From: Zhengitettix transpicula | Taxonomy: Eukaryota > Arthropoda > Insecta > Orthoptera > Tetrigidae | Length of the DNA stretch: 64,000 nt | Assembly: GCA_037074705.1 (NCBI GenBank) | Contig: CM073590.1 | Span: forward strand, 45,048,395-45,112,394 | Direction: 5' to 3' | Shown here: in pieces, positions 6,683 through 60,678 of the stretch | Numbering within the stretch: position 1 is the stretch's first letter | Layout: each line of letters starts with the position of its first letter | Program-made: the position numbers and the translations under genes | The notes under the pieces: model-generated | What the model was told of the DNA's origin: nothing | What the model saw: the letters and a program-made list of their open reading frames with translations, nothing else | Databases searched by the model: none

Positions 6683-9327
6683 ATGGCTAGACAGCACATG
6701 GGTCGAGACACGCGTATCCTTTTCTGGAACGCTTGCGGCCTGTAAAACAAAAGGGTCGAACTGGCCGCGTTCATGACGCAACATGCCGTAGGCATCGCGC
6801 TAGTGAACGAAACACACCTTGTCCCCGCGGATAAGATCCACTTTACACAACATAGTAAAACAAGACACCGCCCATTCGTTTGTACCACTTCCACGATTAA
6901 ACAAGCTTGAAGCCACAGCTGTTAGAATCCAGTTAAATGGAGCATACACTACACTCGTAGCCGTCTACAATAAACCAGGCAGGCCCCAAATAGATGTTAG
7001 AGACATAGACCGGCTACTTAACATCTCAGGAAGGGTAATAGAAGCTGGGGATCTAAACAGTAAACACCCCTTATGGAACAGTAGACGCACTATACGCTCA
7101 CCCACAAACACATACTACATCGTCCTAGGACCACGTGAGGCAACTTACGTGCCCGAAAGACGAAACGCACAGCCAGATGTCCTGGACATAGCCCTTATCA
7201 AGGGCACAGACACTCTTGACCTCACGGTCATACAGGACCTGACTTCAGACCACTACCCTGTACTCATTAGCAACACATGCACCATACAGTACAAAGACAA
7301 GCGCGTCATGTTCAACTATAGGAGGGCCAACTGGAATTTATTCCGGGAAACCCTCGATAGAAACATGAACCACACCGACAACATCAACACCGCGGCGGAA
7401 AAAGACCAGTCTGTTCAGTCCCTCACCGCTGCCATACAGGACGCGATATCCAAAGTCATACGAACGGTAACTCCACACCAACACAGGACGGTGCTCCCTG
7501 ATAGCATAAATGAGTTAATTACCCTAAGGAATAGACTTAGAAGGTATTGGCAGCGAACTAGGTTGCAAATATACAAAACCCATATGAACAGACTTAGAGA
7601 CATCATCAGAGAACACATCAAAACACACCGAAGCATGGAATGGGACAAGCTCCTAGCCAGCTTCGACACCTCCACACGCTCCACGTGGCAGATGGCAAGA
7701 CACTTCACGCGGGAAGCATACCAAATACCAACGCTCCACGGACCAGCAGGGCACGCATACTCCGACTCGGAGAAGGCTGAACTGCTGGCCGACACGCTAG
7801 AGGCCACATTCCAACCGAATGACGATCCCTCAGATCCGATATTCACACTTGAAACGGACCAGGTTGTTACACAGCTGTTAGCCCAAGAAGCCGCCGAGCC
7901 TCTACGGCACACAAACATAGGTGAAATACGGTGGGCTATACAGCAAACACATCCCAGTAAGGCGCCTGGCCCGGATGGCATTCAGAATCGAGTGCTCAAA
8001 CAGCTCTCCCCCCGAGCACTCGAGCAGATCACAGACATCACGAATGCCATCTTCCGAACACAACACTTCCCGGACACCTGGAAACAGGAGAAGGTACTGA
8101 CCTTCCGAAAACCCGGGAAAGACCACTCACTTCCGACCAACTACAGGCCCATAACTTTACTTTGCTCGCTAGGTAAAGTGGTCGAGAAGGTAATGCTGCG
8201 CAGGATCACAGAACACTGCACAGAAAACGATCTCCTAAGGCCGGAGCAATTTGGCTTTAGGAATCAACACTCCACAACACTCCAACTACTACGAGTAGTT
8301 GAACACGTAACAAGAGGGTATAATCTGGCAAGGTCTACGGCAGCCGTTTTCCTCGACGTGGAAAAGGCTTTCGACAAGATATGGCACAACGGCCTGTAAG
8401 ACGGGCTCAATGACTGTAGGTTCCCGCTCGCACTCATACGGCTGCTCCACTCATACCTATCACGTAGGACATTCTTCGTGGATGTCAACACAACACAATC
8501 CACAGTAAGGGGAATACATGCAGGAGTGCCTCAAGGAAGTATCATAGGGCCAGTCCTACATAACATCTACATTAACGATGTCCCCACAACACCAGAAACC
8601 CAGGTCGCCATATTCGCAGACGACACAGCCATCTTTGCTCAGTCGAGGCGACCATGGGCACTTAATAGTAAATTACAACGCGCACTCAACGCACTCGAAC
8701 CATGGTTAACACGATGGCGAATTAAGATCAACGTAGGTAAATGCGAGGCACTCCTACTTACACGTAAGGCACGACACGCACGCCTACATAAAGACTGTCG
8801 TCCACTCACACTCCACAAGCGCCCGATTCAATTCCGAGACACGGTTAAATATCTAGGAGTCTCATTTGACCCGGCCTTGACATGGAGACTCCATACCACA
8901 AATACCATTCGAAAAACAACCATTAGACTGAAACAGCTCTACCCATTGCTTAACAGAACAAGCACCCTCAACACATCCACAGCCCGCGCTCTATACTTAA
9001 CACTCATACGGCCAATCCTGACGTATGCAGGACCAGTGTGGGTGAGGCTATGCAGCCAAGTCACATCTACGTAACCTCCAGGTTTTACAAAACAAGGTCC
9101 TTAAAATCATCGCCAAGGCACCTTGGAGGGCACGAACTAAAGACGTCCAACGCGAATTATACATCCTGCCATTAATGGATGTTATCAGAGAACATGCTGT
9201 ACGCCCGTACAGCAAGACACAATTCTCACACAACACCATCATAAGACGACTGGGCAATTATGACCACACCCGCGTCACAAAACACAAACACCCAAAACAA
9301 CTCCTCCTCTCCCCAGAACCCCCATGA
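6683..9327 (+). pseudogene. LINE ORF2: endonuclease and reverse transcriptase
   Basis: Starts MARQHMGRDTRILFWNACGL, the usual beginning of a Jockey-clade endonuclease. Later motifs are NETHL, GDLNSKHPLWNSR and SDHYPV. RT motifs follow: KAPGPDGI, NYRPITLL, PEQFGFR, VFLDVEKAFDKIWH, GVPQGSIIGPVL and FADDTAIF (catalytic Asp pair near 8613-8624). Breaks visible: TAA at 6743-6745, a frameshift between about 6810 and 6900, TAA at 8398-8400 and a frameshift near 9050. The C-terminus then reads on to a stop at 9325-9327. Length is near that of an intact Jockey ORF2, so this is a recently inactivated copy. Confidence 0.88.
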
Positions 9328-18100: not shown

Positions 18101-21100
18101 AAATGCTTGAGGAGACCTATGGCGGCAGTGCTTTATCGTTAACAACATTCAAAGATTGGTTTCGTCGCTTCAATGACGGCAATTTTGACCTCAGCGACAA
18201 TAAGCGTGAAAATCGGCCCAGGAAGGTTGAGGACCATCAATTACAGGCTCTTTTGGACGAGGAAAATAACCAATTGCTACCATATGCTTGCCGAGAAAGT
18301 TACTCAACGACCTTTTTCCATACACCTACATAGCATGGGAAAGATTCAAAAGATCAGAAAATGTATGACGCATATTTAACGATAGGCAGATGGAGCGACG
18401 TCGAAACACATGCGAAATCTTGCTCGTCAGACATAAAAGAAAGTCCTTCCTACATCGGATTGTAACTGGCGATGAAAAGTAAATATTTTTCGATAATCCT
18501 AATAGCAAGAAATCGCGGGTTTATCTCGGCCAACCATCAACATCGTCCGCAAGACCAAATCGCTTCGGACGGAAGACGATGTTGAACGTTTGGTGGATAA
18601 GCCAACGCCCTCCGCACTGTTTAAGTAACGGTGACGTTGGATCGGCAGGATATCGTCTTTTATCAAGTATTGAAACCTGGTGTAACAGTCAGTTCCCACC
18701 ACCACTAACTGATCAAATTGAATCGTTCTGTGCGTGAAAAAATATCGGATTATCAGCGAAGACATGCCAAGCTGATATTCCTCCCAGACAACGCACCTTT
18801 GCACACGTCAACAATGGTCGGAAACTACTTGGAGGTAGTCAACTGGGAGGTGCCCCAATGTCGCTTATTTACGAGATCAGGCCCCTTCCGACTACCACCT
18901 GTTTTCGTCGATGAATATTTCTTGATGAGTGCTTGCTTTTTCGTGGTATCCACAAATTCCCTGAATGACAGAAAACGTGTGTAGCTAGTGATGGCCGGTT
19001 CTTTGAATGATTTTTTTTATTTCTATGAAAAAAATGTGTTTTGTGAGTAAAAACAGTGGTTACGCCTAGTATTATAAGCCAGGACTTTCAAATCACATTA
19101 TCTCCTTGTTGTTAATGAAACTTTCTGTAGTTTCATTAAATATTAAACTAACAAAGATAGAGAATTCTGGCATCTGTTCGTTATTCGGAATTGTTGTATA
19201 TTTCGTTAATGTTCTGTCGGTTTAGATTCTCGACTAAACTCAATTATTGAATCTGAAGCCACGGACTACACACATAAATACTTGAATTATTGTTTGCTAT
19301 TTTGGAGAACAGAATTTTTAAGCAAAGGCAGACATTTTTCATTCATATTACTGATTTCACTTTTCTTTTCTTTCAGATACAAAGTGTATCGCGTTACTCC
19401 AAATGATATTCAGGTGAAAGTACTCTCCATGTTTGAAGGCAAGAAAGGAATTGACGTCTGGTCCAAAGTAATCAAAGCTGGAAAACCTGTAGACATCATG
19501 GTCGCTCCTGCCAGAGTATGGTTTTTTGAAAGTGTTGTGAAAGGATCTAAGATGCAATACGAAGTCATCATAGATAACTACGGGCCGTAAGTAAATGACA
19601 TTTTCAACTAACTGCATTTGCAGTACTTGCGAGTTTCAACTTTTTCCGTTTGACTGTAATACTGGAATGTAGAAAGAACTGACGACAGTCATAGGCTGTA
19701 TTGTTCTAGATTTAATTTTTACTATGTTTTTGATTTATTAATTTTGTTGTTCGTAATTTCCATAAAATTATCGACGTCAGTTTACAGAGGCACTTGCTTT
19801 GTCTCGCAGCTTTTTAGATAGTTTATTATATTGTAACTAACCTAACTTGTTCATATTCTATTTATAATTATTCAATTTTTACAAAAATTACACAAAAATT
19901 TTAGTGGATGTTGCCTTTATTCTGCATCAAGTTTTTTAGTAACCCGTTAATAAACGGCCTTAATCGCTTACCTGACGAAAGCAACAATCCAGGAGTTTGC
20001 GCGAGGTGATTCCATGAAGATCAAATTTTCTTATCTCTTTCCAAAAATATTTTAGAGACTAATTAGAAAAATAAGTAATGTTATCTGTTAATTAGTCACA
20101 ATCTAATACAGACGGAATTATACAGGGTTTTCGGATAGTTGCTGTGCATTTACATCACTACACATCCCAATAGCTTTCATCAACTGAACCAAAAAGAGTT
20201 AAATGTTACGTAACAATAGAGCGAATTAAAAGAAATCGCGTATCTATGAAAAAACAGTTCTGCTAACTTGTCTTCTACCAACTTCGTTTCGAACTTCGAA
20301 CGTACATCTACATCCGTAGTCAAGTGCACAGAGACTTTCCGAACGCACTGTATAATTTTAATATTTTAGAAAACTCCTTCATTAACGAAGATGCTTTACG
20401 ACTTTGGCTTCTTCTAATCTGCAAACTTCTGCAGACTTGAAATTGTTAAAGCACCCTAGTTTTTGGAGAAAACATCCTTGTATTTTGAATAAGAAAAATA
20501 GCCAATTCAGACAAAAAGTGTAATATAAATACCAGACAACGTTTCTGGGATCCTTGTCCCTTTCATCAGGTGCTAAGAAGAGCCTAGAGTAACACAACTG
20601 CACTTGTCATTTGACAAAACTCAAAATCAAACTTGGCGTTTGAGTTTTGTCAACTAACAAGTGCAGTTGTGTCGCTCTAGTCTCTTCTTAGCACCCGACG
20701 AAAGGAACAAGGATCCCAGTAACGTTGTGTGGTATTTATATTACACTTTTTGTCTGAATTGGCTATCGTTCTTATTCATTCTTATCGGACGTAAATTTTT
20801 TCATCCTTGTATTTTATTGATTGCAAATAAAACGTTATACCAGAGCGAGAGTACACTACATATGTTTCCATCGACCCAATATTAGTTTATGTAAAAAGCT
20901 GGCTAGTCATCGAGTTAATGTATTAATTAGTTATCGAGATCTGTTGTCTGTTATATAATATGTTATAATATATCTGAGTTTTATCAAAATCTTCAATTTA
21001 AGTGAAATGTGAGATAAGTCAAGAAAGTGAATGGTAGCTGATAATACCAAAGATATTCATTTGACAGATTGAACCTATCTTTCACTTCCAAGCTTCAAGA

Positions 21101-24100: not shown

Positions 24101-27100
24101 AGAAATTCTCAGCATTGAAAGACAATTCTTATAAAGGTTCCAAATAATTAAGAATATATCATTCTTTCCAATTTTCTTTATGTGACGTAGCTCATAAGCA
24201 TATGTGCACCAGCAGTCACTGATTGGATTATATTATCCAAAGCAGTTAAGCGGTGGAGCTGAAGGCGAAAGAAGGTTCAATGTAAATCACAGCACAGTGT
24301 AGTGATAATTATCTAGGTAAAAGTTGTTAAGAAAAATGGCAACCAGAGACAACTTTTTATGCTTTACACGAAGGTTGCAGTTCCAAGGTTCATAAAGTTT
24401 TATTTTTATTGCTGTAATCTCACAAAGTTGCTCAAATAATGTCACATCAATTTGGAGCACATTTTTCATTGCTTACAACTTTGCAACAAAACCTTCCACA
24501 AACTTATGCTTTGATGAATTAACCAAACCCATTACTTCTTTTAAGCTGCCAAAGTATCAGCTATTAAGCTCGCTTAGTTGTCAAGATATACGCTATTAAA
24601 TATGAGTTTCAAATTTTACGCGTCAAATTTTGTGAATTTTCACATACAAATAGCAAAAAACCTTTTGCTACAAGCAAGTTCTTTTTGTTACCTTCGAAAA
24701 GGGCAGGCTTTTTTCTGATAGAGTTATCTTATTTGACGTTTGAGACTCATCATTTAAGGCCAGAAAAATTACTTTGAAAATTGCACTAATTAAAATAATA
24801 TGGTATACTGCACGAATGTGATGAAAGCAAATCATTTGTACTGGTTCATTCAAACTATTGATGCTTAATGTCAACCAAATAGTTTTTATTTATTGTTTAT
24901 AATTTCCCCAATATTTAATATTACATTTTTAAATAACAAATTGAATTATAATATGCACTCCAACAAAGGCCAGTCTAATCAGCCATGAGCCTTGCCTGGT
25001 TACGGGGCGTGGCCACTAGGCGATGGGGTTTCAGATTTAAGCCTTGAAAGAAGTGATGTATACATACACACTCATTTATAGCTAGAAATTGGTAGTGGCT
25101 CAGTCACCTTGGTCCAACGCAAGTATTTTTGATTTTGAAATCATATATAACCTTCTAATAGCATTACTTTTATTAGATAAGATTCACATATTGCAAAACA
25201 ATAAATAAAAATCACTTGTTTGACATTAAACATCATAAACTCGAATAGTTTGAATGAACCAGTACAAATACTTATAAGTAAATATAAGATAAAAGTAACA
25301 TATATGAAATTAAATTATCGTTTGCAGGTTGGAAGAATATTCGTTGACGGAATGACCAGGAATTTTAATAGTAGGATCTAATAGGATACATAGTGTAGGG
25401 GGTTATAGAATCAGCGAAATCACAGTAGAGCGTTTTAAATATTATCAAAAGATAATCTGGATTATATTAAGTGCTGAATTAAAAATTGTCTGGCATTCAT
25501 GAAAAGCGTCATATAAATGTAAATAATATTAAATTATATATGATATCGGTAAGAAATAGAGATCAAGTGTATTGCACGGAACACATGTTTCAACTTTGTG
25601 CAAAATGGGATGGAATAGAGAAGTAGGATTGGAAGTGTGAATACATTATATGAATTATACAGTTAAGTTTCGTGCTGCTGAAAGTATATAAAAATTAATA
25701 TTAATTTAAATACAAGTTCTCAGAAAGAATAGACTTTCAAATAACGACATCGTTGCAGATCGTGGCTTACGTTCAAGGCCTCGCCACTCAGTACCCAGAT
25801 GTTGTGACCGTGACGTTCCCCGGTACCTCCTCCGAGGGAAGAAAAATTCCCCTGGTGACGATCTCTACGGGCGGGGGCGGCAGCAAGCCTGCCATCCTCA
25901 TCGACGGCGGCATCCACGCGCGAGAGTGGATCGCCCCCGCAACCGCCCTCTACATCATCAACCAGCTGGTTGAGAACGCCGCCGTCAACTCCGACATCAC
26001 GGCCTCCGTCGACTGGCTCATAGTTCCCGTGCTCAACCCTGACGGATACGAGTATACCAGAACTGACGTTAGTTTCTATCATTAAGTATGACGTCAGTAA
26101 TCCGCCTTTGTTCGTTATTTTTTAGGTAATTTTCGTGAAGGCTTGATGGGTTGTAATTGTCTAATATGCATTTACTCTCATGCAAACTAGATATTAAGGG
26201 GTATCGTCGCAATAATCTTTTGAATTGACATAAGATAATAAAAGTATGACAAAATTCCTGTGCTAAGATGTTTATTATTAATTTATTATTCATACTACTG
26301 TTATATTTTGTGCTTGAAAGCCTGTTTACTTCTATTTTAACAATTATATATTCACGCAGTAACTAATATGCTTTAATAATTTTAATTTCTAGTATTATTT
26401 TTCATTCATTTAACAAAATAGGACCGATTTTGGAGAAAAAACCGAGCCCCTGCTCCTGGATCTAACTGTTTAGGAACTGATCCCAACAGAAATTTCGATT
26501 ATCATTGGGCAGGTACGGCAATAAAATATTCTTAAATATATTTATAATATTGCAACATATTGCTTCAAAACATTAGCTTTGAAAATCTGTGATTTCTGAA
26601 AATAATTTATCATAAAAAAGTATGAGTTACATTTACATTCCTTGACGTTTCAGCTTAAAATTTTAGTGGTATAGGTTATAAATAGTTATCGGTTTGTGCT
26701 TAAGTTTTATATATTCATTGTAAATGAAACGTTTGAAACATCTCCGATCATATTTTGTCCAAAAATAGATCGGGGAATTTAATGAAGTTAATTGTTCTGT
26801 TTTAAAGAGAGCGGTGTAAGCATGGATCCATGCTCTGATATATTTGCTGGACCAGCTGGATTCTCAGAACTGGAATCACGAACCCTGAGAGATATCAACC
26901 AAGCCAATTCTGGACGCATAAAGCTGTATTTGGCTCTACACAGCTATGGACCTGTAAGTACTGACAATATAAAAACGAAAAGCATTGAGTTCGTACGTTA
27001 ACGATGGAAGCTGCCACGTCACGAACGGATTTTAAATGATTATTTTGTTAAATTAAAATAATGGCCACATACAGTGTAGGATCTAAAAGTTAAATTAATA

Positions 27101-30100
27101 CATTACAAAGACGTCAACCCAAATGAAATTGACAAATATATTAAGCATTGCGTTATAGATACATCCGTCACCAATGAGTTAGCAATCGCTAGCTTCAAAT
27201 CCAGATGGCATTTGTTTAACCGATATACATCACCCCTCGAAATGAAATATTAATGGCTCTCAATATAGTGTTGAAATCTACACTTTTCTCTTTTAATCAT
27301 TCCCACTTTTATTCCAATGGGCAGTCCACTGTCTCCTCTGTTCGCTTTAATTGTCATTAGGCATTTAGAGAAATCTTGAAGTTCAACAACTTTGCTATTA
27401 TAGGTATATTGATGACATATTTTTGCATTATTCAATCCTCGAAAATAAACCATATCATTGATGTCTTTAATAAATACAATTCAGAACTATTGGTTACACA
27501 TGAATTGCCTAACGATAATTCTCTTAATTTTCTCCATTACACTTAATAATTCTGTTTTATCTTACAACTGGTATAGGAAACACACTTTTTCAATGATAGT
27601 CCCTAATTATTTTTCTTATCATTCCATCAATCAAAAATAGGTTATGGTGTGCAATTTATAAGATAGAGCCATTCTTCTGTTGCAACCATCTTTTCACTCC
27701 CTTAATTTAGTATCTGTAGTAGGTATCTTTGTCACTAATGGCTAGCCCAAGGATTTCAACATTTTATTCCAAAATAACTCCTAAACCGAAACACAACCCT
27801 AAGTTTTTTAATTTTATTAATTTTTTCACAATAGTTTCAGGAGATAAATCCAACATTTCACTATCTTTACTTACAAAGACCCTATAAATTCTCAGGACAA
27901 CAATAATATAGAATATAAAATTTCTTGCGATGATTTCCCTGCTGTTTATATAGGACAACCAAAAAAAACTCTGAACACAAGCTTAAAAAAAGCTCATTGT
28001 GAACTATAATCTATCATATCACAAAACAATCGGTTATAAACAAACATTGTACTTTGAACAACATTCGATTATGACAATACTAAGATTGTAGATAACGATT
28101 GTACCACAACAGATAAATTTCTGAAATCATTCATAATAAATTATTAACGTCCAAAGTTGTACAAGATAACTCAGCAGTATCTATGACGCATTACTTTCTG
28201 CTTAATATCTTTGTCAGTTTTATTTGGGTTTAAGACCTTTGTACATTTTAGTTCACCTAATGAGGTACGCCAAACGTGTGTATTATTTTTCAATGTAATA
28301 ATGTAACTTTTATATCCTATATTGTCAGTAAGTGGCCATTATTTTAACTTAAATATTGTAAACATGAAAATTATAGCAGATTATTTTGTTACTTTAAACT
28401 AATTTCTTCAATTGTTCTTGGCCAAATATTCATATGAGTAGGTTTGTTATATTATTGTAAATACTTTTCTCACAACATTTTAAATGTACACGTTTGAATT
28501 ACTTTTGCAAACAAGATAAAGGTTAATGTCTATTCATTTATTCTATTAAAATCATAGTTCCAAAGCGTACTAAGAACATTTGCGTTTTAATGAACAGCCA
28601 TAAAAGTGAAAGACATTCACTTCGGAGAACAGTTTCAAATGAATATAGTGTTAGTAAACTTTACAGCAGCAGTACAATTTTAAAAGTGAGATGTTTTCAC
28701 AAAAAATTACTCTTTGGCTCGACAGCCCATGATGGGCCTTGGCCTACCGAGACGGCTGCCAGACTGTCATCTTACATGACACATTCTGGATTTAGGAGTG
28801 ACACCTGGTCAGAGTGTCGATTCTCCCACAGCCTTAGCCCCAGTTTTCGTGAGAAGGACGACCACAAACACCCATGCCCATGCAGGAACCTCTGCGATGC
28901 GATGACGCTGGCCACTACACCACGGCACGCCGGCACAAATCAGACCTACCCACCAAAAATTTGGTATATATGGATTCATCGGCTTTACAGTGTAATATTG
29001 ACTACTAATAATAAATACCAGTTAAAACTAACAAAATATTTCGATTACCAACATCGACATGTCTGTTGGACATGGTCTTCCAATATTCTCTTTCACGATT
29101 TCGTACGCACTTTTTCTACACAGGTTCGTTCCAAATATTCATTAAAGATGAACAATGACTCCACAACCAACCAGAAGAAAAACAAATACAAAATCATTAA
29201 AATAAGTTTTGTAATTTTCACTTCGTCAGTTTACGATACTTCATAAGATTTATCATAATGTAACTCTGAAGAATTGAGTTTCTTTAAATAGTATTTTCTA
29301 TTTACATTTCATTATATGTTTTCCCTTCTTCTTCTTCCATGGCGCTACAGTCCGTAGTGAACCTTGGTCTTTCCAACGAGCTTCTTCTATCCTTCACGGT
29401 CATATGCTGTCCTCTTCCAATTTCTACATCGTTGTCTATTCATCCGTCCGGCTTCAACTCTTTGGATTTTCGTAACTTTGGTTTTTTTACGGGAGGAGGG
29501 TGTTAACCTCAAGCCCAACCCCCAACCTGGAGGGCCGGGGTAACCCATTTAGTCTGGGTCATCACCTTTGACCTGTCCAGCAAGGGAGGTCCTACCAGTA
29601 GCTACGCTACCGCTGGCATAGCTCTCAGGATCACTTGACCACTCAAGCCCCACCACCACTTCAAGGTTATTGGTGGAGATATGTTTTCCCTGGTCAATGC
29701 AAAAATTTCGATTACATTTCTAATACTTTAAAACTATCATTCACATTACCGCTCTGAATTGTTTGCAGACTATGAGCATTTGGCACGGGCGGACTGGTTC
29801 ATAATTAAATAAAAGATATTGCCCTTCAAATAATTGTAAAATATTATATTAATCATACACGAAAACAGAAATACGAACGAAATAACAAAATATGTATTTG
29901 ATACCGGTGTGATGCCACGTAGCGCGAAGACTGGAATTTTGGAGTGAGTTTGGTTCATTAGTCAGAACGGCACAAACATCGTAATATGTATAATGTGAAT
30001 CGGCACCAGATGAGAAAAAAAAGTATTGAATGATTCGCAACACTAATTCTCAGTTCAAAGTGTACTGTGGTTGAAGATGAATAGGATGCAAGCTTCTCAG

Positions 30101-47815: not shown

Positions 47816-48373
47816 TTAGGATACTACAGATTGTTTATCAACAGGAAGTTTGATATTAGATATATGTTCCTTGACACGTGTATTAAGTGAACGTTTTGTT
47901 TCCCCTATGTAGCAGGAATTACAAATAGAGCAAGTGATTTTGTAAACAACACAATGTTTGTTGTGGGTGTCAAGTGAGTCCTTGTGGTTTTTAATCAAGT
48001 ATGAAAGTGTATTACTGGATCTGTAAATAATAGATATTTGATACTCTTTGAATATTTGAACAAATTTGTGATGTAGAAATTTGTAATAAGGGAGTACGAG
48101 GAAAAATTTGGCTTGAGGTGTTTGGGGACGATTGACAGTAGGATGTTGGATTTTGTTTAGTCTGCTGTTTATGTGTTTAAAAATTAAATTTAAAGGGTAC
48201 TCATTGGAGATTAAAACGTTTCGGACAATATTTAAGTTGGGTTGATAGAACTTGGAGTTAGAAAGTAAATAGTTCTCAATACAAGATTGTATACCATAAC
48301 GCTTCTTTGGTTTAGAGGACGAACAGAAAGATAATTGAGAACACGTCCAGAGTATGTAGGTTTTCTGAACCAA
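47816..48373 (-). pseudogene. PLE protein fragment with GIY-YIG endonuclease
   Basis: 185-residue open frame. The N-terminal half resembles the post-RT region of Penelope proteins (KKRYGIQSCIENYLLSNSKF, then NVLISNEYP). The C-terminal half holds the GIY-YIG nuclease start VVYKITC, the YIGETKRSLNTR box and KEHISN. The Penelope GIY-YIG domain nicks target DNA for priming. Upstream RT is missing from this strand. The frame is open but 5'-incomplete. Confidence 0.8.
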
Positions 48374-51711: not shown

Positions 51712-51887
51712 TCAGCGAGACTTGAACACTATATTGAATGGTTTCGGAGACAGTGTTATTCCATTCAGTCCTTTGATATTCAGATTAGTATTTTCAGCAG
51801 GAGACAGTTCAAAGTTTTGAATAACTGACGTAAACATGAGAAAAATTGTACTTTTTGCAAGTGCTTCGCCCAGACAACGTCTCCTTC
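51712..51887 (-). CDS. P450 last exon (haem-binding loop to stop)
   Basis: Acceptor CTTACAG on minus, first base 51887. Encodes (G)[15 protein letters not shown] and the terminal beta-sheet region with LSPKPF, ending in TGA. The codon for the loop Gly is split across the intron. Confidence 0.93.
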
Positions 51888-54800
51888 CTGTAAGAATAAC
51901 AGTAAACTCATAGAAATCATATTAATTCATATTTACAATTTTTATTACTAGTGATTAGATAGCATTTAACCCTACTAAAAACTTAAGAAACAGGAAATAA
52001 TAGAATAGATAATTCGTAGAAACCTAAACTTCGAACAACTGGGATAATAGGATCTCAAAACTTAATTGCAGACTTCCTGTTTTGCAGATGTCAGTACCAC
52101 TGGATCACATCACAGCCGCCAGGGTTCAAATCCCGGAGAGCGCATAGATGTTGTGTCCGTTGGTTTCCCTACTCACAAACCCCCAATATTAAGTACTTTC
52201 TCCAACAAAGAAATGCAACATATTAGACCTACAATGTCGCTTCACAGTTGATGTGACAAAAATAAAAAATAAACTATTAGTGACCAGTTATTTCTGATGC
52301 TGTTGGGTTACGTTTGTTTACGACGCGTTCTCCTATGTTTCGCTTGACTAGTACGAGCATTATCAGGCCTAGGTATACTGGTGAACCTCAAATAAGTAAT
52401 GAAAGTACGTCAACCAACATAGTTCTCGTGACCGTCTTCGACAAAATAGTTCGCCCAACGTGGGGCTCGAACCCACGACCCTGAGATTAAAAGTCTCATG
52501 CTAAACCGTCTGAGCTTGCCGGGCGGTATGTGGGTGCTTGTTATTTGATTTTAACATTATATTCGAGACAGATATTGAAATAATATCCGAAAAAATGTTA
52601 GCCCAACGAGGGGCTCGAACAAGGACCCTGAGATTAAAAGTCTCATGCTCAATCGACTGAGCTAGCCAGGCGGTATGTGGGTGATTGTTATTTGATTTTA
52701 CTATTACATCCGAGATAGACGTCGCAAGAATCTTCGGCGAAAAAGATCGCCCAACGTGGGGCTCGAACCCATGACCTTGAAATTAAGAGTCTCATGCTCT
52801 ACCGACTGAGCTATCCGGGCGGTCTGTATGTGATGGTTATTTGATTTTAGTAAAACATCCGAGATAGTTGTAGGAACAGATTCCTACAAAAATGTTAGCC
52901 CAACGAGGGGCACGAACCCACGACCCAGAGATTAAGTCTCACGCTCTACGGACTGAGCTAGCCGGGCGGTATGCGGGTCATTGTTATTTGATTTTAGTAT
53001 TACATCCGAGATAGATGGAACAATATCCGACAAAAATGTTGGCCCAACGTGGGGCTCGAACTCACGACTCTGAGATTAAAAGTCTCATGCTCTACCGACT
53101 AAGCTATTCGGGCGGAACGTCGTTGCTTGTTATTTGGTTTCAGTATTACATCCAAAATAGACGTAGCAACAATCTTCGTCGAAAAAGTTCGCCCAACGTG
53201 GGGCTCGAACCCACGACGTTGAGATTAAGAGTCTCATGCTAAACCGTCTAAGCTAGCCGGGCGGTGCTTGTTATTTTATTAAACATTATATTCCAGACAG
53301 ATATTGAAATAATATCCGACAAAAATGTTAGCCCAACGTGGAGCTCGTACCCACGACTCTGAGATTAAAAGTCTCATGCCCTACCGACTGAGCTAGCCGG
53401 GCGGTACGTGAGTGCTTGTTATTTGATTTTAATATTATATTCGAGATAGATGTTGGAACAATATCCGACAAAAATGTTAGCCCAACGTGGGGCTCGAACC
53501 CACGACCCTGAGATTAAAAGTTTCATGCTCTACAGACTAAGCTAGCCAGGAGGAATGTCAATGCTTGTTATTTGGTTTCAGTATTACATCCGAGATAGAC
53601 GTAGAAACAATTTTCGGCGAAAAAGTTCGCCCAACGTGGGGCACGAACGCACGACCCTGAGATTAAGAGTCTCATGCTCTACCGTCTAAGATAGCCGGGC
53701 GGTATGTGAGTGCTTTATATTTAAATCTATATTATTTTCGAGATAGATGTTGGAACAATATCCGACAAAAATGTTAGCCCAACGTGGGGCTCGAACCCAC
53801 GACCCTGAGATAAAAATCCCATGCCCAACCGACTGAGCTAGCCGGGCGGTATGTGAGTGCTTGTTATTTAAATTTATATTATATTCGAAATAGATGTTGG
53901 AACAATGTCCTACAAAAATGTTAGCCCAACGTAGTGCTCGAAACCACGACCCTGAGATTAAGAGTCTCATGCTCTACAGACTGAGCTAGCCAGACGGTAT
54001 GTGGGTCATTGTTGTTTGATTTCAGGATTACATCCGAGATAGACGTTGCCAGAATGTTCGGCGAAAAAGAACGCCCAAAGTGGGGCTCGAACACATGATC
54101 CTGAGATTAAAAGTCTCATGCTCTACCGACTAAGGTAACTAGGCAGAATGTCGGTGCTTGTTATTTGATTTTAATATTATATTCGAGATAGATGTTGGAA
54201 CAATATCCGACAATAATGTTAGCCCGAAGCGGGGCGTGAACCCACGACTCATAGATTAAAAGTCTCATGCTCTACCGACTGAGCTAGCCGGGCGGTATGT
54301 TAGTGCTTGTTTTTTGATTTTTTTATTATATTCGAGATAGATGTTGGAACAATATCCGACAAAAATGTTAGCCCAACGTGTGGCTCGAACACACGACTCT
54401 AAGATTAAAAGTGTCATGCTCTACCGACTGAGCTAGTCGGGCGGTATGTGAGTGCTTGTTATTTTATTTTAATATTATATTCGAGAAAGATGTTGGAACA
54501 ATATCCGACAAAAATTTTAGCCCAACGTGGGGCTCGAACCCACGACGCTGAGATTAAAAGTATCATGCTCTACCGACTAAGCCAGCCGGGCGGAATGTCG
54601 TTGCTGGCTATTTAATTTCAGTATTCCATCCGAGAAAGACGTAGCAACAATCTTCGGCGAAAAAGTTCCCCCAACGTAGGGCACGAACGCACGACCCTGA
54701 GATAAAAATCTCATGCCCAACCGACTGAGCTAGCCGGGCGGTATGTGAGTGCTTGTTATTTAAATTTAAATTATATTCGAGATAGATGTTGGAACAATAT

Positions 54801-57800
54801 CCTACAAAAATGTTAGCCCAACGTGGGGCTCGAACACTCGACTCTGAGATTAAAAGCCTGATGCTCTACCGACTGAGCTAGGCAGACGGTATGTGGGTCA
54901 TTGTTGTTTGATTTTAGGATTACATCCGACATAGACGTTGCCAGAATGTTCGGCGAAAAAGAACGCCCAAAATTGGGCTCGATCAGATGTTCCTGAGATT
55001 AAAAGTCTCATGCTCTACCGACTGAACTAGCCGGGCGGTATGTTGGGATTGTTATTTGATTTTAATATTATATTCGAGATAGATGTTGGAACAATATCCG
55101 ACAAAAATGTTAGCCCAACGTGGGGCTCTTACCCACGACCCGGAAATTAAGAGTCTCATACTGTACCGACTGAACTGGCCGGGCGGTATGTAGGTGATGG
55201 TTATTTGATTTTAATATTATATTCGAGATAGATGTTGGAACAATATCCGACAAAAATGTTAGCTCAACATGGGGGCTGAACCCACGACCCTGAGATTAAA
55301 AGTATCATGCTGTACCGACTAAACTAGCCAGGCGGAATGTCGGTGTTTGTTATTTGATTTTAATATTATATTCGAGATAGATGTTGGAACAATATCCGAC
55401 AAAAAAGTTAGCCCAACGTGTGGCTCGAACACACGACTCTAAGATTAAAAGTCTCATGCTCTACCGACTGAGCTCGCCAGGCGGAATGTCGGTGGTTGTT
55501 ATTTGATTTTACTATTATATTCGAGAAAGATGTTGGAACAATATCCGACAAAAATGTTAGCCCAACGCGGGGCTCGAACCCACGATCCTGAGATTAAAAG
55601 TCTCATGCTCTACCGACTGAGCTAGCCGGGCGGTATGTTGGTGCTTTATATTTAAATCTATATTATTTTCGAGATAGATGTTGGAACAATATCCGACAAA
55701 AATGTTAGCCCAACGTGGGGCTCGAACACACGACTCTGAGATTAAAAGTCTCATGCTCTACCGACTGAACTAGTCGGGCGGTATGTGAGTGCTTGTTATT
55801 TTATTTTAATATTATATTCCAGATAGACGTTGGAACAATATCCAACAAAAATGTTAGTTCAACGTGGGGGCTGAACCCACGACCCTGAGATTAAAAGTCT
55901 CATGCTCTGCCGACTGAGCTAGCCGGGCGGTATGTGGGTCATTGTTGTTTGATTTCAGGATTACATCCGAGATAGACGTTGCCATAATGTTCGTAGAAAA
56001 AGAATGCCCAAAGTGGGGCTCGAACACATGACCCTGAGATTAAAAGTCTCATGCTCTACCGACTAAGGTAACTAGGCAGAATGTCGGTGCTTGTTATTTG
56101 ATTTTAATATTATATTCGAGATAGATGTTGGAACAATATCTGACAAAAATGTTAGCCCAACGTGGGGCTCGAAGCGACGACCCTGAGATAAAAATCTCAT
56201 GCTGTACCGACTGAGCTAGCCGGGCGGGAGGTGGGTGCTTGTTATTTGATTTTAATATTATATTCGAGATAGATGTTGGAACAATATTCGACAAAAATGT
56301 TAGCCCAATATGGGGCTCGAACCGACGACACTGTGATTAAAAGTCTCATGCTCTACCGACTGAGCTAGCCGGGCGGTATGTTGATGCCTGTTATTTGATT
56401 TTAATATTATAGTCGAGGTAGATGTTGGAACAATATCCGACAAAAATGTTAGCCCAACGTGGGGTTCGAACCCACGACCCTGAGATTAAAAAGTCTCATG
56501 CTCTGCCGACTGAGCTAGCCGGGCGGTATGTGGGTGCCTGTTATTTGATTTTAATATTATATTCCAGATAGATGTTGGAACAATATCCAACAAAAATGTT
56601 AGCTCAACGTGGGGGCTGAACCCACGACCCTGAGATTAAAAGTCTCATGCTCTACCGACTGAGCAAGCCGGGCGGGAGGTGGGTGCTTGTTATTTGATTT
56701 TAATATTATATTCGAAATAGTTGTTGGAACAATATCCGACAAAAATGTTAGCCCAACATGGGGCTCGAACCCACGACCCTGAGATTAAAAGTCTCATGCT
56801 CTACAGACTGAGCTAGCCGGGCGGTATGTGGGTGCTTGTTATTTGATTTTAATATTGTATTCAAGATAGATGTTGGAACAATATCCGACAAAAATGTTAG
56901 CCCAACGTGGGGCTCGAACCCACGACCCTGAGATTAAAAGTCTCATGCTCTACCGACTGAGCTAGCCGGGCACTTCACGCTAATTGCGATCTGCTTACCC
57001 TTGTCCACGTATGTGGGTAGCTAAGTGTGGAAGGTCCTCGCGAATTCCCCCGATTTCTTGTTCTCGCAATTTATCCTGGTTGTAACTGATATATTTGTAA
57101 TTGATATATGAAATATATGAAAACCACAGCGGGAGTATCTCTATTAAAAATTTGCTAGTCTCTTTCGGATTTCAATTCTCTAGAATCATCCGCGTTTAGA
57201 AAGAATTTTCCGTGTCACGTCTCTTCGAGGTGTATTTTGTAGCTTTTCTGGATGGTTTTTTGGCTTCACTGTCAACGATTATATCGTTAATAATTTTAAA
57301 ATCTGGTATTTACAGACCAGCCGGTTTCTCTGATGTACTACTTTCCAAATATTAGAATTTACTTAGGATATTTGATTTACAAATAAGTTGCCTGCCTTTT
57401 ACTGGCGAGTAAAATGTTCTAATTTTTTGGCAGCTCTGAAATTATGCTCGATTTTCTTTAATCTCCTGCCACTAATATGTTCTGGTACTCCTTCGAATAT
57501 TTTGCCGAATACTTTTTTCCCCTGTATTTTCGATAAGTTCGCTTCTACATTCATTCTTATTAAGGCCCTGCTTCAATTGTGTATTTTCTCATTCCAGACT
57601 TTCTTCGGCTCATATTCTTTCCACTCTATAGAATAGTGTTTTAATTAGTGCTCGTTTTTGCGCTTGATGGTGGTGTGACGTAGCATGTAAATATCTGTTT
57701 GGTTTGGGTTGGTTTCCTATACGTCTCATGCCCGTGAAAGCAGTTTTCGAGTCACCAAAACATCCACGAACGGCAATGATCCGTTATCTTCCACTTCCAC

Positions 57801-58896
57801 TGTGCCTTTAATACTACCATTCACATGCAGTAGGAACAGTTCCAATTATTGTCTTCCATGAAAGTGTCGTCCACGTATCTCACCCATAAGTTCGGGTAAC
57901 TGTGACAGTTTCAACGTCAGCACAAGCGCCGTCGAAGTCATCGATTTCCTTGGGATATTTGCTAAAGTCAGGTACACGAGTGTTACGTATCGAAATATAT
58001 AATTATACCAATATTATATTAAGTCATTGTAACAACTGTATGGTATATACGTTATTGGATCAACGATAATGTCATATCTGTTAATAAATAAAAACTTATT
58101 AACTGGCTCTCTGAATTAAAGCAGATATTTGAATTGGTCATGTGAAAGATTACGAGTATCCTTAATGGATGAAGTAACTTTAGCAATGCAGTAATGGCCA
58201 GTCTCCGGGCTCCAAATTGACTTGCTGCAACAACAAATAGTTCTTACCTAGCCCGAAAGGCACGAACCAGTCGTCGGTAGAAGGTTGTCCATTCTCTCGA
58301 ATGAAACGTTCTGGTCTAAAGTTGTCAGGGTCACCCCAGTGTGACTTGTCATTGTGCAGCGTCCAGACATTAATTAAAACCACGGTGTTCTGTGGAAATT
58401 GAAATGATATTTCTCAATTTAAAACTATATTTTTCTTGAATTTACTTAAAAACTAAATGAATATTTCTAAATCACCTAGAAGATGATAAAAATAAATATC
58501 TTTTATGCTATAATCGTCGTAAGTTGGTTTAATATTTTAACAGACAACTTAAAGTGTTCATACACTTCTAATATAAAAAAAGCAAAAAAAAACTTAAAAT
58601 AGTTAAACTAAAAATAAAGAAACGTAATGTATTGCTAAAAAATTCCAAAATTTCATAACTGATAACCATTTAAGGATATTCCTATTCTTAAATTAATTCT
58701 GCCATCATGTTCTACGAACGAGTAGAGCAGATACCTATTTTTTCGTTTCAACCCATAAGTATAGTAATTGTCACTTACTTTAGGCAACGAATAATCAAGT
58801 AGAGTTGTGTCTCGAAGTGTTCTTCGAGGTCCTATTACTGGAATAATGTGGCAGAAACGTTGTGACTCCATTATCACTGCCCTTGTGTACGGCAAT
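51712..58896 (-). CDS. Cytochrome P450 (clan-2 type), C-terminal part of a split gene
   Basis: Three minus-strand exons join in phase. They encode the K-helix MESQR (ExxR, within [14 protein letters not shown]), then the [16 protein letters not shown] segment, FRPERF, then the haem loop [15 protein letters not shown] with the axial Cys, and a C-terminus ending FNIVFKSR and TGA (51712-51714). P450s of this type are ER-anchored monooxygenases. The pattern LPYTxAVxME and PHR/GPRRT fits insect CYP2-clan members; I cannot name the family. N-terminal exons (membrane anchor, I-helix) lie beyond 64000 or were not found. The last intron is 6,360 bp and holds the tRNA-Lys array and a PLE. Another PLE sits about 25 bases before the acceptor of the first visible exon. 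Confidence 0.92.
51888..52336. other. P450 last intron, 3' part
   Basis: AT-rich. A plus-strand 'gccagggttcaaatcccgg' (52119-52137) resembles a tRNA B-box, perhaps from a decayed SINE; no A-box partner seen. Confidence 0.3.
52337..52366 (-). ncRNA. PLE-tail hammerhead-like motif
   Basis: Minus strand: CTGATAA, GCTCG...CAAGC stem, GAAAC. Isolated tail fragment with no PLE coding sequence nearby. Confidence 0.4.
52452..52524 (-). tRNA. tRNA-Lys: tRNA-Lys unit 1 (TTT)
   Basis: 73 nt, last unit in the direction of transcription. D arm altered (A-box AAGCTCAGACGG) and one D-stem pair lost; T and anticodon arms intact. Confidence 0.7.
52600..52671 (-). pseudogene. tRNA-Lys unit 2 (TTT), T-stem deletion
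   Basis: 72 nt; one base missing and others changed on the 5' side of the T stem, so the T arm cannot pair fully. Confidence 0.7.
52748..52820 (-). tRNA. tRNA-Lys: tRNA-Lys unit 3 (CTT)
   Basis: 73 nt, anticodon CTT. Consensus A- and B-boxes; mismatches only at pairs 7-66 and 49-65. Confidence 0.75.
52897..52967 (-). pseudogene. tRNA-Lys unit 4, 5-nt anticodon loop
   Basis: 71 nt; two bases missing from the anticodon loop, so no normal anticodon. Confidence 0.75.
53041..53113 (-). tRNA. tRNA-Lys: tRNA-Lys unit 5 (TTT)
   Basis: 73 nt; mismatch in acceptor pair 7-66 and T-stem pair 52-62, otherwise consensus. Confidence 0.7.
53190..53262 (-). tRNA. tRNA-Lys: tRNA-Lys unit 6 (CTT)
   Basis: 73 nt, anticodon CTT; D loop altered as in unit 1. 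Confidence 0.7.
53330..53402 (-). tRNA. tRNA-Lys: tRNA-Lys unit 7 (TTT)
   Basis: 73 nt; one T-stem mismatch, T-loop A57 change (B-box GGTACGAGCTC) weakens Pol III box B. Confidence 0.65.
53479..53551 (-). tRNA. tRNA-Lys: tRNA-Lys unit 8 (TTT)
   Basis: 73 nt; first acceptor base changed (5' TCC), so pair 1-72 is lost; T arm consensus. Confidence 0.6.
53628..53700 (-). tRNA. tRNA-Lys: tRNA-Lys unit 9 (CTT)
   Basis: 73 nt, anticodon CTT; changes in D stem and T stem. Confidence 0.6.
53776..53847 (-). pseudogene. tRNA-Lys unit 10, 6-nt anticodon loop
   Basis: 72 nt; loop shortened by one base and D arm changed. Shares these changes with unit 16. Confidence 0.7.
53923..53995 (-). tRNA. tRNA-Lys: tRNA-Lys unit 11 (CTT)
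   Basis: 73 nt, anticodon CTT; acceptor and T stem each carry mismatches. Confidence 0.55.
54072..54144 (-). tRNA. tRNA-Lys: tRNA-Lys unit 12 (TTT), decayed acceptor
   Basis: 73 nt; 5' acceptor reads GCCTAGT and the D arm is changed. Nearly identical to unit 25. Confidence 0.5.
54221..54293 (-). tRNA. tRNA-Lys: tRNA-Lys unit 13 (TTT)
   Basis: 73 nt; 3' acceptor and T-loop changes (B-box GGTTCACGCCC). Confidence 0.5.
54370..54442 (-). tRNA. tRNA-Lys: tRNA-Lys unit 14 (TTT), compensated T stem
   Basis: 73 nt; pair 52-62 is T-A instead of the consensus G-C, so the T stem still pairs fully. Same in unit 21. Confidence 0.65.
54519..54591 (-). tRNA. tRNA-Lys: tRNA-Lys unit 15 (TTT)
   Basis: 73 nt; one anticodon-stem and one D-stem change. 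Confidence 0.65.
54668..54739 (-). pseudogene. tRNA-Lys unit 16, 6-nt anticodon loop
   Basis: 72 nt; loop shortened, acceptor and T stem mismatched. Related to unit 10. Confidence 0.7.
54815..54887 (-). tRNA. tRNA-Lys: tRNA-Lys unit 17 (TTT)
   Basis: 73 nt; anticodon stem mismatched on the 5' side, acceptor changed as in unit 11. Confidence 0.5.
54964..55036 (-). pseudogene. tRNA-Lys unit 18 (TTT), T arm destroyed
   Basis: 73 nt; multiple changes in both strands of the T stem and in the T loop; spacer as for units 12 and 25. Confidence 0.65.
55112..55184 (-). tRNA. tRNA-Lys: tRNA-Lys unit 19 (CTT)
   Basis: 73 nt, anticodon CTT; T loop changed (TAAGAGC), D stem mismatched. Confidence 0.5.
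55261..55333 (-). tRNA. tRNA-Lys: tRNA-Lys unit 20 (TTT)
   Basis: 73 nt; T loop TTCAGCC as in units 24 and 29, several stem mismatches. Confidence 0.5.
55410..55482 (-). tRNA. tRNA-Lys: tRNA-Lys unit 21 (TTT), compensated T stem
   Basis: 73 nt; same T-A pair at 52-62 as unit 14; D arm consensus. Confidence 0.65.
55559..55631 (-). tRNA. tRNA-Lys: tRNA-Lys unit 22 (TTT), near-consensus
   Basis: 73 nt; all stems pair (one G-T to G-C type change in the T stem), consensus A- and B-boxes. A good candidate functional copy. Confidence 0.85.
55707..55779 (-). tRNA. tRNA-Lys: tRNA-Lys unit 23 (TTT)
   Basis: 73 nt; has only the 5' half of the 52-62 change seen in units 14 and 21, leaving a mismatch. 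Confidence 0.65.
55856..55928 (-). tRNA. tRNA-Lys: tRNA-Lys unit 24 (TTT)
   Basis: 73 nt; 3' acceptor GTTGAAC and T loop TTCAGCC differ from consensus. Confidence 0.55.
56005..56077 (-). tRNA. tRNA-Lys: tRNA-Lys unit 25 (TTT), decayed acceptor
   Basis: 73 nt; same acceptor and D-arm changes as unit 12, discriminator A. Confidence 0.5.
56154..56225 (-). pseudogene. tRNA-Lys unit 26, 6-nt anticodon loop
   Basis: 72 nt; loop shortened; T stem mismatched. Confidence 0.65.
56302..56374 (-). tRNA. tRNA-Lys: tRNA-Lys unit 27 (TTT)
   Basis: 73 nt; T-stem and anticodon-stem mismatches, D arm consensus. Confidence 0.6.
56451..56524 (-). pseudogene. tRNA-Lys unit 28, 8-nt anticodon loop
   Basis: 74 nt; one extra T in the anticodon loop; remainder consensus (B-box GGTTCGAACCC). 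Confidence 0.6.
56601..56673 (-). tRNA. tRNA-Lys: tRNA-Lys unit 29 (TTT)
   Basis: 73 nt; T loop TTCAGCC, position 8 changed from T to a base giving TT at 8-9; stems otherwise good. Confidence 0.6.
56750..56822 (-). tRNA. tRNA-Lys: tRNA-Lys unit 30 (TTT)
   Basis: 73 nt; one T-stem change and a D-loop G-to-T-type change; otherwise consensus. Confidence 0.75.
56899..56971 (-). tRNA. tRNA-Lys: tRNA-Lys unit 31 (TTT), perfect consensus
   Basis: 73 nt, first unit in the direction of transcription. All stems pair, anticodon loop CTTTTAA, consensus A-box TAGCTCAGTCGG and B-box GGTTCGAGCCC. Its upstream flank is unique sequence, not spacer. Followed by a T5 run. Confidence 0.93.
56972..57369. other. 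P450 last intron, unique 5' flank of the array
   Basis: Non-repetitive sequence immediately upstream of unit 31; any upstream control of the array would lie here. No motif recognised. Confidence 0.4.
57370..57990 (-). mobile_element. Decayed PLE reverse-transcriptase fragment in the P450 intron
   Basis: Minus strand: [10 protein letters not shown] (57861-57877 for the YVDDTF core), then [19 protein letters not shown], then a broken [13 protein letters not shown] stretch down to about 57600. Several frameshifts. GIY-YIG part not seen. Confidence 0.7.
58248..58389 (-). CDS. P450 penultimate exon
   Basis: Acceptor CCACAG, donor GTAAGA on minus. Encodes [26 protein letters not shown] and WFVPFGLG; the last Gly codon is split with the final exon. 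Confidence 0.94.
58390..58778. other. P450 intron, nothing recognised
   Basis: AT-rich intron between two P450 exons. Confidence 0.5.
58779..58896 (-). CDS. P450 exon with K-helix
   Basis: Acceptor TTTTAAG, donor GTAAGT on minus. First base completes an upstream codon; then [20 protein letters not shown] with Exx[15 protein letters not shown] and SLPK. Confidence 0.94.
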
Positions 58897-59015
58897 CTTA
58901 AAAGGAAAAAATTAATGAGATGAATATAAATTTAGAACGAAGGTTTTCCCGGTGTAGAAAGTTAGTAAAAGTTTCTCGGGCTTCCAGCCGGGTAAACTCG
59001 TCGATAGCACGCGAC

Positions 59016-59047
59016 GTTTCGATGACATTCAGCGTCATCATCTTCTG
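59016..59047 (-). ncRNA. Hammerhead-like motif, left arm
   Basis: Minus strand: CAGAAGA (degenerate CUGANGA), TGAC...GTCA stem, then GAAAC. Confidence 0.35.
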
Positions 59048-59078
59048 GCGAAGTGCCGAGTTGTCTGAACGGATCCCC

Positions 59079-59750
59079 TTATATATGTTTGCGGCAGTGG
59101 CGGGGGTAGGTGGTCCTCTGATTGGCTGGCGCCTCAGTCTGCGGCGGGGTGTCGCGCGCATCTCCAGCTGGCTTCGTGCAGCGGGTGTTGGTGCCGCCCA
59201 CCGCCTTCCCGGCGGGGTCGGACGCGGGAGTCGCATTATCGGCTCCCTTGTCCTGGGAAGTTCCAGCGTCCCGAGCTTGGGCTTGTCGTCTCAGACCGGC
59301 GACTAGTGGTCCCCAGGCCCGGCTGAGACCGAACCCCGTGTCCCTGTTCAGGAGGTTGTCCTGCAATCTTATCTCCACTGCCTCTAGTAGCACACTGTCC
59401 CAGTAGTTATTGGCGTGGCCTAGCAATCTGGTATTTTCCCGATTTATCCGGTGTCCGGTTACAATAGCATGCTCGGCCACTGCGGATTTTGTCGGTTGTT
59501 TTAGTCGCCACCACCTCAGGTGTTCGGTCATTCTCTCTTCCACCGTTCTTATAGTCTGGCCAACGTATTTTTGGCCACATTCGCACGTGACCTCATACAC
59601 ACCCGGTGTTCTAAGGCCAAGGCTATCCTTAGTTGGGGGGAGGAAACTCCTAATTTTCCTCTGAGGCCGAAAGACAGTTCTGACGTCATGCTTCGCCAGG
59701 ATCCTGCCTATTTTTCCCGAGGTGCTACCCGCATAGGGGAGGAAAGCCAC
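59079..59750 (-). pseudogene. PLE GIY-YIG endonuclease region, open frame
   Basis: 223-residue frame. An N-terminal linker with FRPQRKIRSFLPPTKD, then GIY-YIG motifs PGVYEVTC, KYVGQTIRTVEERMTEH, then a helix-rich tail and a low-complexity Thr/Ala/Pro-rich C-terminus ending CRKHI. The frame has no stop, so this piece is young, but the RT upstream is incomplete. Confidence 0.8.
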
Positions 59751-59867: not shown

Positions 59868-60109
59868 CTATAGGCTTTTCCCATCGGAGATGGTACGGGC
59901 CCTATGTATTAGCGTACTCAGAACTGTGGACTTTTGGGTGGGGTGGTGGTAACTGCTGGCGTGCAAATACAAGTCCGTATGAGTTGGTTTCCTGTATACG
60001 CTGTGCGCGAGCGTCCCGTCTGGTCTCCGGGTTACCAAAACGTCCAGGAATGGCAGACATCCTCTAGTTTCTACCTCCATGGTAAACTGGATATTGGGAT
60101 GGACGCTGT
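59868..60109 (-). pseudogene. PLE reverse-transcriptase C-terminal fragment
   Basis: Minus strand encodes NIQFTMEVETRGCLPFLDVL, then RPDGTLAHSVYRKPTHTDLY and LIHRARTISD, the conserved segment that follows the PLE RT palm. The palm with its catalytic Asp pair is missing: the right arm begins exactly where it should continue. Confidence 0.8.
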
Positions 60110-60678
60110 TGACCGAACACCTGAGGTGGTGGCGACTAAAACAACCGACAAAATCCGCAGTGGCCGAGCATGCTATTGTAACCGGACACCGGATAAATCG
60201 GGAAAATACCAGATTGCTAGGCCACGCCAATAACTACTGGGACAGTGTGCTACTAGAGGCAGTGGAGATAAGATTGCAGGACAACCTCCTGAACAGGGAC
60301 ACGGGGTTCGGTCTCAGCCGGGCCTGGGGACCACTAGTCGCCGGTCTGAGACGACAAGCCCAAGCTCGGGACGCTGGAACTTCCCAGGACAAGGGAGCCG
60401 ATAATGCGACTCCCGCGTCCGACCCCGCCGGGAAGGCGGTGGGCGGCACCAACACCCGCTGCACGAAGCCAGCTGGAGATGCGCGCGACACCCCGCCGCA
60501 GACTGAGGCGCCAGCCAATCAGAGGACCACCTACCCCCGCCACTGCCGCAAACATATATAAGGGGATCCGTTCAGACAACTCGGCACTTCGCCAGAAGAT
60601 GATGACGCTGAATGTCATCGAAACGTCGCGTGCTATCGACGAGTTTACCCGGCTGGAAGCCCGAGAAACTTTTACTAA
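60110..60678 (+). repeat. Right inverted arm of the PLE
   Basis: 569-bp inverted copy of 58962-59530; encodes EHLRWWRLKQPTKSAVAEH onward in plus orientation and contains the mirrored hammerhead-like motif at 60593-60624. Confidence 0.9.

What the first reader, a model, noticed from the sequence alone, without database searches (positions are those of the whole stretch)
52452..56971. 31-copy tRNA-Lys array inside a cytochrome P450 intron, same strand
The last P450 intron contains 31 tandem tRNA-Lys units, so a Pol II transcript through this gene would carry 31 cloverleaf-forming segments, and Pol III units would lie in the same direction within it. Large tRNA clusters are known in eukaryotes, but such an array within a single intron of a P450 between the PERF and haem-loop exons is one I do not know of. 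Possible consequences are transcriptional interference, tRNA-processing cuts in the pre-mRNA, or use of the array as an insulator.
Basis: partly seen in the sequence, partly recalled or inferred. Interest (0 to 1): 0.9.

Follow-up and report, generated by a model that had tools for sequence, protein, structure and literature searches.

The report
Decaying lysine-tRNA repeats inside an intron
A cytochrome P450 gene, probably from an animal, carries inside its last intron 31 head-to-tail copies of a lysine transfer-RNA gene, many of which look like decaying repeat DNA rather than working genes; the arrangement is unusual but made of known ingredients.

Summary
Thirty-one head-to-tail tRNA-Lys units (period about 149 bp, minus strand, 56971 to 52452) fill 71% of a 6,360-bp intron of a cytochrome P450 gene on the same strand. 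The flanking exons join in frame and align to CYP2R1. An artefact of copied reads is unlikely: no exact repeat in the array reaches 120 bp.

The reading "31 tRNA-Lys genes" is too strong. The first unit is identical to human tRNA-Lys(CTT) except the wobble base (C34 to T, anticodon UUU) and the discriminator (G73 to T). In the 23 units of the main subfamily the tRNA part has diverged as much as the spacer (7.1% against 6.6%). Four of 31 units pass my strict intactness rule; 30 of 31 keep a T-run.

Best explanation: one tRNA-Lys gene with its 3' flank amplified in tandem in the intron and now evolves mainly like a small satellite, with one to a few units possibly still working. No result here shows an effect on the P450. 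The host genome could not be searched (nine calls unanswered), so uniqueness, expression and conservation are open. New variant of a known kind; interest moderate.

The parts
58779..58896 (-). P450 exon (LPYTRAV...SLPK)
   Evidence: Frame and splice ends read; Pfam p450 over the joined 144 aa
58248..58389 (-). P450 exon with the PERF motif, ends in phase 1 before the haem loop
51888..58247 (-). P450 intron of 6,360 bp (gtaaga ... ttacag) that holds the array
   Evidence: exons join in frame, alignment to CYP2R1 without a gap at the junction
51712..51887 (-). Last P450 exon with the haem loop ([12 protein letters not shown]) and stop codon
52452..56971 (-). Array of 31 tandem tRNA-Lys units, period about 149 bp (72-bp tRNA and 77-bp spacer, discriminator counted with the spacer, in the main subfamily consensus)
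56899..56971 (-). Unit U01: identical to human tRNA-Lys(CTT) except C34T and G73T; 66.1 bits; best candidate working gene; its 5' flank is unlike the other units
56750..56822 (-). Unit U02, passes the strict intactness rule (its free fold departs from the cloverleaf in the T arm)
55707..55779 (-). Unit U09, passes the strict intactness rule (one broken pair)
55559..55631 (-). Unit U10, passes the strict intactness rule, A and B boxes as in U01
53190..53262 (-). Unit U26, example of subfamily B: CTT anticodon, G73, B-type spacer
57595..57824 (-). Decayed retroelement fragment in the same intron, upstream of the array
   Evidence: tblastn E 4e-11 to the open piece at 59868-60233, with stops in the fragment; the name Penelope-like is by eye and recall, Pfam gave no match for that piece

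Best explanation
A tRNA-Lys gene together with about 77 bp of 3' flank was amplified head to tail inside the last intron of a P450 gene and has since behaved mainly as a small tRNA-derived satellite. Shown here: an A subfamily (23 units, mostly T73 and UUU anticodon) and a B subfamily (8 units, mostly G73, 3 with CTT) with mosaics between them; decay of the tRNA part at the spacer's rate in A; divergence in A rising from the upstream end to the downstream end. Inferred: the founder was a CTT/G73 gene of the ordinary animal kind; the A subfamily changed its wobble base (isoacceptor shift, still lysine) and discriminator and then spread by unequal exchange or conversion; the whole array is removed with the intron, so the P450 protein is untouched; Pol III may still read U01 and perhaps U02, U09 and U10, each stopped by its own T-run.
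For: 31 units with one period. In the 23 A units, 117 of 1,651 tRNA sites and 116 of 1,753 spacer sites differ from consensus (7.1% and 6.6%, Fisher P 0.59); with base composition matched, 117 against 121.7 expected, ratio 0.96. Sixteen core tRNA positions, chosen from recall, 6.8% against 7.1% for the rest. Indels inside the tRNA in 6 of 31 units, B-box core kept in 19 of 31, no broken stem pair in 8 of 31, strict rule passed by 4 of 31. Divergence against unit order in A: Spearman 0.68, P 0.0003. Mosaic example: U16 and U22 are 93% alike in the tRNA but 68% in the spacer. U01 differs from the human tRNA-Lys(CTT) printed in PMC8216282 only at 34 and 73. First-base isoacceptor shifts are the common kind (39 of 44) and Lys is among the amino acids with isoacceptor shifts (PMC3923123, passages).
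Against: The selection test is weak: the bootstrap range of the ratio is 0.61-1.69, so partial constraint is not excluded. Counted per unit, stem changes break pairs less often than when moved at random (A: 33 against 44.1 expected, P 0.005; all 31: 52 against 66.3, P 0.004), and 92.0% of pair cells are paired against 91.2% in shuffles (8 of 500 reach it). When changes shared between units are counted once the broken-pair deficit goes (A: 26 against 27.2, P 0.42), but the kept fraction in all 31 is still borderline (0.35 against 0.28, P 0.047; shared changes alone P 0.03). Terminator T-runs survive in 30 of 31 units and 14 of 31 score above 50 bits. Amplification in place is inferred; no relatives were seen.
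Confidence: 0.68

Rival explanations
1. A working tRNA-Lys(UUU) gene cluster kept for tRNA supply, with many active units and some pseudogenes.
For: 14 of 31 units score above 50 bits in RF00005; 30 of 31 keep a T-run, and 26 of 31 have a lysine anticodon in a loop without indels (21 TTT, 5 CTT); U01 folds into the cloverleaf; the UUU anticodon suffices for human LysRS, and that enzyme charges an acceptor minihelix without sequence specificity (PMC9976931, passages), so T73 need not stop charging. Pairing is kept somewhat better than random when counted per unit.
Against: tRNA part no better conserved than spacer in the 23 A units, core positions included; B-box core broken in 12 of 31 units. 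Of five units folded freely, two (U01, U10) give the exact cloverleaf.
Confidence: 0.13
2. The array acts in cis on the P450: many TFIIIC/Pol III sites or tRNA-like folds in the pre-mRNA alter elongation, splicing or chromatin.
For: Position and same-strand orientation. Intronic mitochondrial-type tRNA look-alikes raise splicing in reporters, depending on number and position (PMC7722341, abstract and one section). In C. elegans, intronic tRNAs on the host's strand have lower Pol III occupancy than those on the opposite strand (PMC4999229, passages). A human tRNA tandem repeat binds CTCF (PMC4041453, abstract and passages).
Against: Nothing in the sequence tests it; no clear constraint on boxes or cloverleaf. 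[quoted passage not shown] here U01 lies 1,276 bp from the 5' splice site and U31 564 bp from the 3' splice site.
Confidence: 0.1
3. A SINE-derived satellite: the unit came from a tRNA-Lys SINE rather than from a tRNA gene.
For: SINE-derived satellites exist (PMC10702118, abstract and passages); some SINE heads are tRNA-Lys-like (recalled).
Against: U01 is a full-length tRNA with only two differences from a known tRNA, followed 5 bases later by a T5 run; no clear dispersed copy of unit or spacer elsewhere in the window (best E 0.05).
Confidence: 0.07
4. Assembly artefact: copy number inflated, or exons of two genes joined.
For: Tandem repeats are error-prone in assembly (recalled); no reads were seen.
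Against: The 30 units compared differ pairwise at 14% of tRNA and 18% of spacer sites on average and share no exact repeat of 120 bp; exons join in frame with splice signals and homology on both sides.
Confidence: 0.05

Closest known systems
Tandem tRNA gene repeats: human 1q23.3 tRNA VNTR (PMC4041453, abstract and passages) and Arabidopsis SYY cluster (PMC12308677, abstract and passages)
   Same: Head-to-tail repeated tRNA genes
   Different: Those hold several isotypes (five tRNA genes per unit of about 7.3 kb in human; Ser and Tyr in Arabidopsis); here one isotype, a 149-bp unit, inside one intron, and much decayed
Eukaryotic tDNA clusters surveyed in PMC2888827 (abstract and passages)
   Same: Clusters of tRNA genes and pseudogenes with fast turnover
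   Different: No passage I saw treats a long array within one intron; in 2010 it named Entamoeba as the only reported case of tRNA tandem repeats
Intronic tRNA genes of C. elegans (PMC4999229, abstract and passages)
   Same: tRNA genes in introns of protein genes, on the host's strand or the other
   Different: The passages I saw speak of single intronic tRNA genes, not arrays; there the pairing with the host gene is reported as conserved between species, not testable here
SINE-derived satellites of squamates (PMC10702118, abstract and passages)
   Same: Short Pol III-derived repeat turned into a tandem satellite, with subvariants
   Different: Units there are portions of SINEs; here a full tRNA with a T-run after it

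Membership tests
Working eukaryotic tRNA-Lys gene (unit U01) | Cloverleaf, A and B boxes, 7-nt anticodon loop with lysine anticodon, T-run terminator | tested here: met
   U01: 66.1 bits, no broken pair, boxes as in the human gene, TTT, T5
Working eukaryotic tRNA-Lys gene (unit U01) | Expression and charging | not testable with these tools
   No RNA data
Working tRNA gene cluster (31 units) | Most units intact | tested here: not met
   4 of 31 pass my strict rule; by the laxer Rfam gathering score 28 of 31 are tRNA-like
Working tRNA gene cluster (31 units) | tRNA part more conserved than spacer | tested here: not met
   7.1% against 6.6% in 23 A units; composition-matched ratio 0.96, range 0.61-1.69, so partial constraint not excluded
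Working tRNA gene cluster (31 units) | Base pairing kept through change | tested here: inconclusive
   Excess pairing per unit, mostly lost per distinct change
Satellite or tandem repeat | Head-to-tail units of one period with subfamilies and exchange | tested here: met
   Period 149; A and B subfamilies; mosaics
Satellite or tandem repeat | Long arrays at heterochromatic sites, many loci | not tested
   Genome search unanswered
SINE-derived satellite | Unit matches a dispersed SINE | tested here: inconclusive
   No clear dispersed copy in this window; genome not searched
Cytochrome P450 host gene | PERF and haem-loop exons in one frame across the array | tested here: met

The most novel reading that the evidence does not exclude
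The array is a working cis element: dozens of same-strand tRNA folds and TFIIIC sites in one intron tune the P450's elongation or splicing, with copy number as the dial, while the upstream unit still yields a tRNA-Lys(UUU) with an unusual U73.
Probability: 0.1. Interest if true: 0.78.

Novelty: new variant of a known kind. Interest (0 to 1): 0.42.

Why it matters
It is a compact case in which birth, anticodon shift, spread and death of tRNA genes can be read from 31 neighbouring copies, and a natural test of how much Pol III-type sequence an intron tolerates. If the array affected the P450, copy-number change in a tRNA repeat would be a new route to vary the output of a protein gene.

Tried and rejected
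Block duplication of several units: shared rare variants peak at a lag of 13 units (P 0.003 alone, 0.06 over all lags), and runs along one lag are not unusual (P 0.21), so I do not claim it. Neighbouring units are not more alike than distant ones (P 0.80).

Spacer remnant upstream of U01: a 13-base match with one gap, P 0.054; not claimed. Match of the flank downstream of U31 to the unit: not significant (P 0.47).

Selected retention of terminators: one change in 115 A-subfamily sites of the T5 run, but other spacer T sites also change rarely; not claimed.

A decayed SINE suspected by eye near 52,070-52,160: no tRNA match in Rfam at E up to 5; dropped. No Rfam match at E up to 1 in 56972-58247. 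The ARAGORN tRNA at 29085-29181 has no Rfam match; probably spurious. The bacterial-type promoter and terminator scan is not meaningful for this DNA; its 22 terminator-like sites (4.7 expected) are mostly the ends of the tRNA units.

Search for the tRNA (CTT or TTT form) in viral contigs: none.
Full report
Check of the observation. Between 52452 and 56971 on the minus strand lie 31 head-to-tail units that each begin with a tRNA-Lys-like stretch. Tandem Repeats Finder sees one array of period 149 with score 5932, ARAGORN finds 26 tRNAs there, and 28 of 31 units reach Rfam's gathering score of 29, with 30.2 to 66.1 bits; 14 score above 50. Unit lengths are 140-150 bp.

The host. Exons 58896-58779, 58389-58248 and 51887-51712 have canonical intron ends and join into 144 residues that match Pfam p450 (152.1 bits) and run along CYP2R1 residues 332-471 without gaps. 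The intron 58247-51888 is 6,360 bp; the array takes 4,520 bp of it. Further upstream exons were not found: of 48 open minus-strand pieces of 25 aa or more between 60,500 and 64,000, 10 were scanned and none matched P450. A decayed retroelement fragment lies in the same intron upstream of the array.

What the unit is. U01, the unit nearest the 5' splice site, equals the human tRNA-Lys(CTT) printed in PMC8216282 (one passage read) at 71 of 73 positions; the two changes are the wobble base C34 to T and the discriminator G73 to T. So the array is a CTT-type body with mostly a UUU anticodon: in the alignment 25 TTT (four of them, U04, U06, U16 and U22, with an indel in the loop), 5 CTT and 1 partly deleted. 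Shifts of the first anticodon base within one amino acid are the usual kind, 39 of 44, and lysine is among the amino acids concerned (PMC3923123, passages). For human LysRS the UUU anticodon suffices and the acceptor minihelix is charged without sequence specificity (PMC9976931, passages), so T73 may be tolerated.

Two subfamilies. A (23 units; T73 in 22, C in 1) and B (8 units; G73 in 7, A in 1) differ mainly in the spacer. CTT occurs in 2 of 23 A and 3 of 8 B units. The human-like states G73 and CTT make B-like units the more ancestral, by inference.

Are these working genes? In the 23 A units the tRNA part differs from the A consensus at 117 of 1,651 sites and the spacer at 116 of 1,753 (Fisher P 0.59). 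Matching base composition gives a ratio of 0.96, bootstrap range 0.61-1.69 (draws that lacked a base were dropped). The eight B units were left out of these two counts because their spacers form a separate type; over 30 units of both types the mean pairwise difference is 0.141 in the tRNA and 0.182 in the spacer. Of 31 units, 25 have no indel in the tRNA, 19 keep the B-box core, 8 have no broken stem pair, 30 keep a T-run, and 4 pass my strict rule: U01, U02, U09, U10. The rule asks for no indel, at most one broken pair, at most one mismatch in each of the A and B boxes, the B-box core, a lysine anticodon and a T-run; it is mine, and tRNAscan-SE was not available. Under RNA energy rules two of the five units folded (U01 and U10) give the exact cloverleaf; U02, U13 and U26 depart from it.

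Structure tests cut both ways. Counted per unit, broken pairs are fewer than when changes are moved at random (33 against 44.1 in A, P 0.005; 52 against 66.3 in all, P 0.004). Counting each distinct change once, the deficit is gone in A (26 against 27.2, P 0.42; singletons 18 against 17.9), with the kept fraction borderline for all 31 (P 0.047; shared changes alone P 0.03). The pair counter shows 92.0% paired cells against 91.2% shuffled, reached by 8 of 500, and a covariation score reached by 32 of 500. I take this as weak or past constraint at most.

History. In A, divergence rises with distance from U01 (Spearman 0.68, P 0.0003). U01's tRNA has no difference from consensus while its spacer has 2, as have U13 and U24, which leaves open whether U01 is kept by selection or merely young. 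Adjacent units are not more alike than distant ones, and some units are mosaics, such as U16 and U22. This is the pattern of exchange within an older array rather than of fresh stepwise duplication. No clear copy of unit or spacer occurs elsewhere in the window (best E 0.05).

What is known. Tandem tRNA repeats are known (PMC4041453, PMC12308677), tDNA turnover is said to be comparable to that of unconstrained elements (PMC2888827), 56% of intronic tRNA genes lie on the host's strand in C. elegans, with lower Pol III occupancy than those on the other strand (PMC4999229), intronic tRNA look-alikes can aid splicing (PMC7722341), and Pol III-derived repeats can become satellites (PMC10702118). 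Of these I read abstracts and passages, plus one section of PMC7722341. Among the rows listed by ten paper searches (several lists were cut far below the number of hits, and most rows were seen as title and start of abstract) I saw no case of a long single-isotype array in one intron; the library lacks most subscription papers.

Verdict. Real and unusual in place, ordinary in kind: a tRNA-Lys gene turned small satellite within an intron, with U01 the one unit that looks fully like a gene. An effect on the P450 is possible but unsupported.

Noticed in passing
58962-59530 and 60110-60678: Two 569-bp arms, 100% identical, in inverted orientation, just upstream of the first P450 exon seen. They enclose retroelement-like open pieces that I call Penelope-like by eye; Pfam gave no match. 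Looks like a recent insertion.
   Followed up: partly
19210-19590 and 25705-26085: Open pieces with a carboxypeptidase M14 propeptide and an M14 peptidase domain, plus strand; perhaps exons of one gene.
   Followed up: partly
47816-48373: Minus-strand piece with a GIY-YIG match just above Pfam's cut-off (22.7 bits against 22.6); perhaps a retroelement.
   Followed up: no
6807-9074: Non-LTR retroelement: endonuclease and reverse transcriptase domains in 6807-8399; the next open piece 8400-9074 was not scanned.
   Followed up: no
29085-29181: ARAGORN tRNA-Lys call with no Rfam support; probably spurious.
   Followed up: yes
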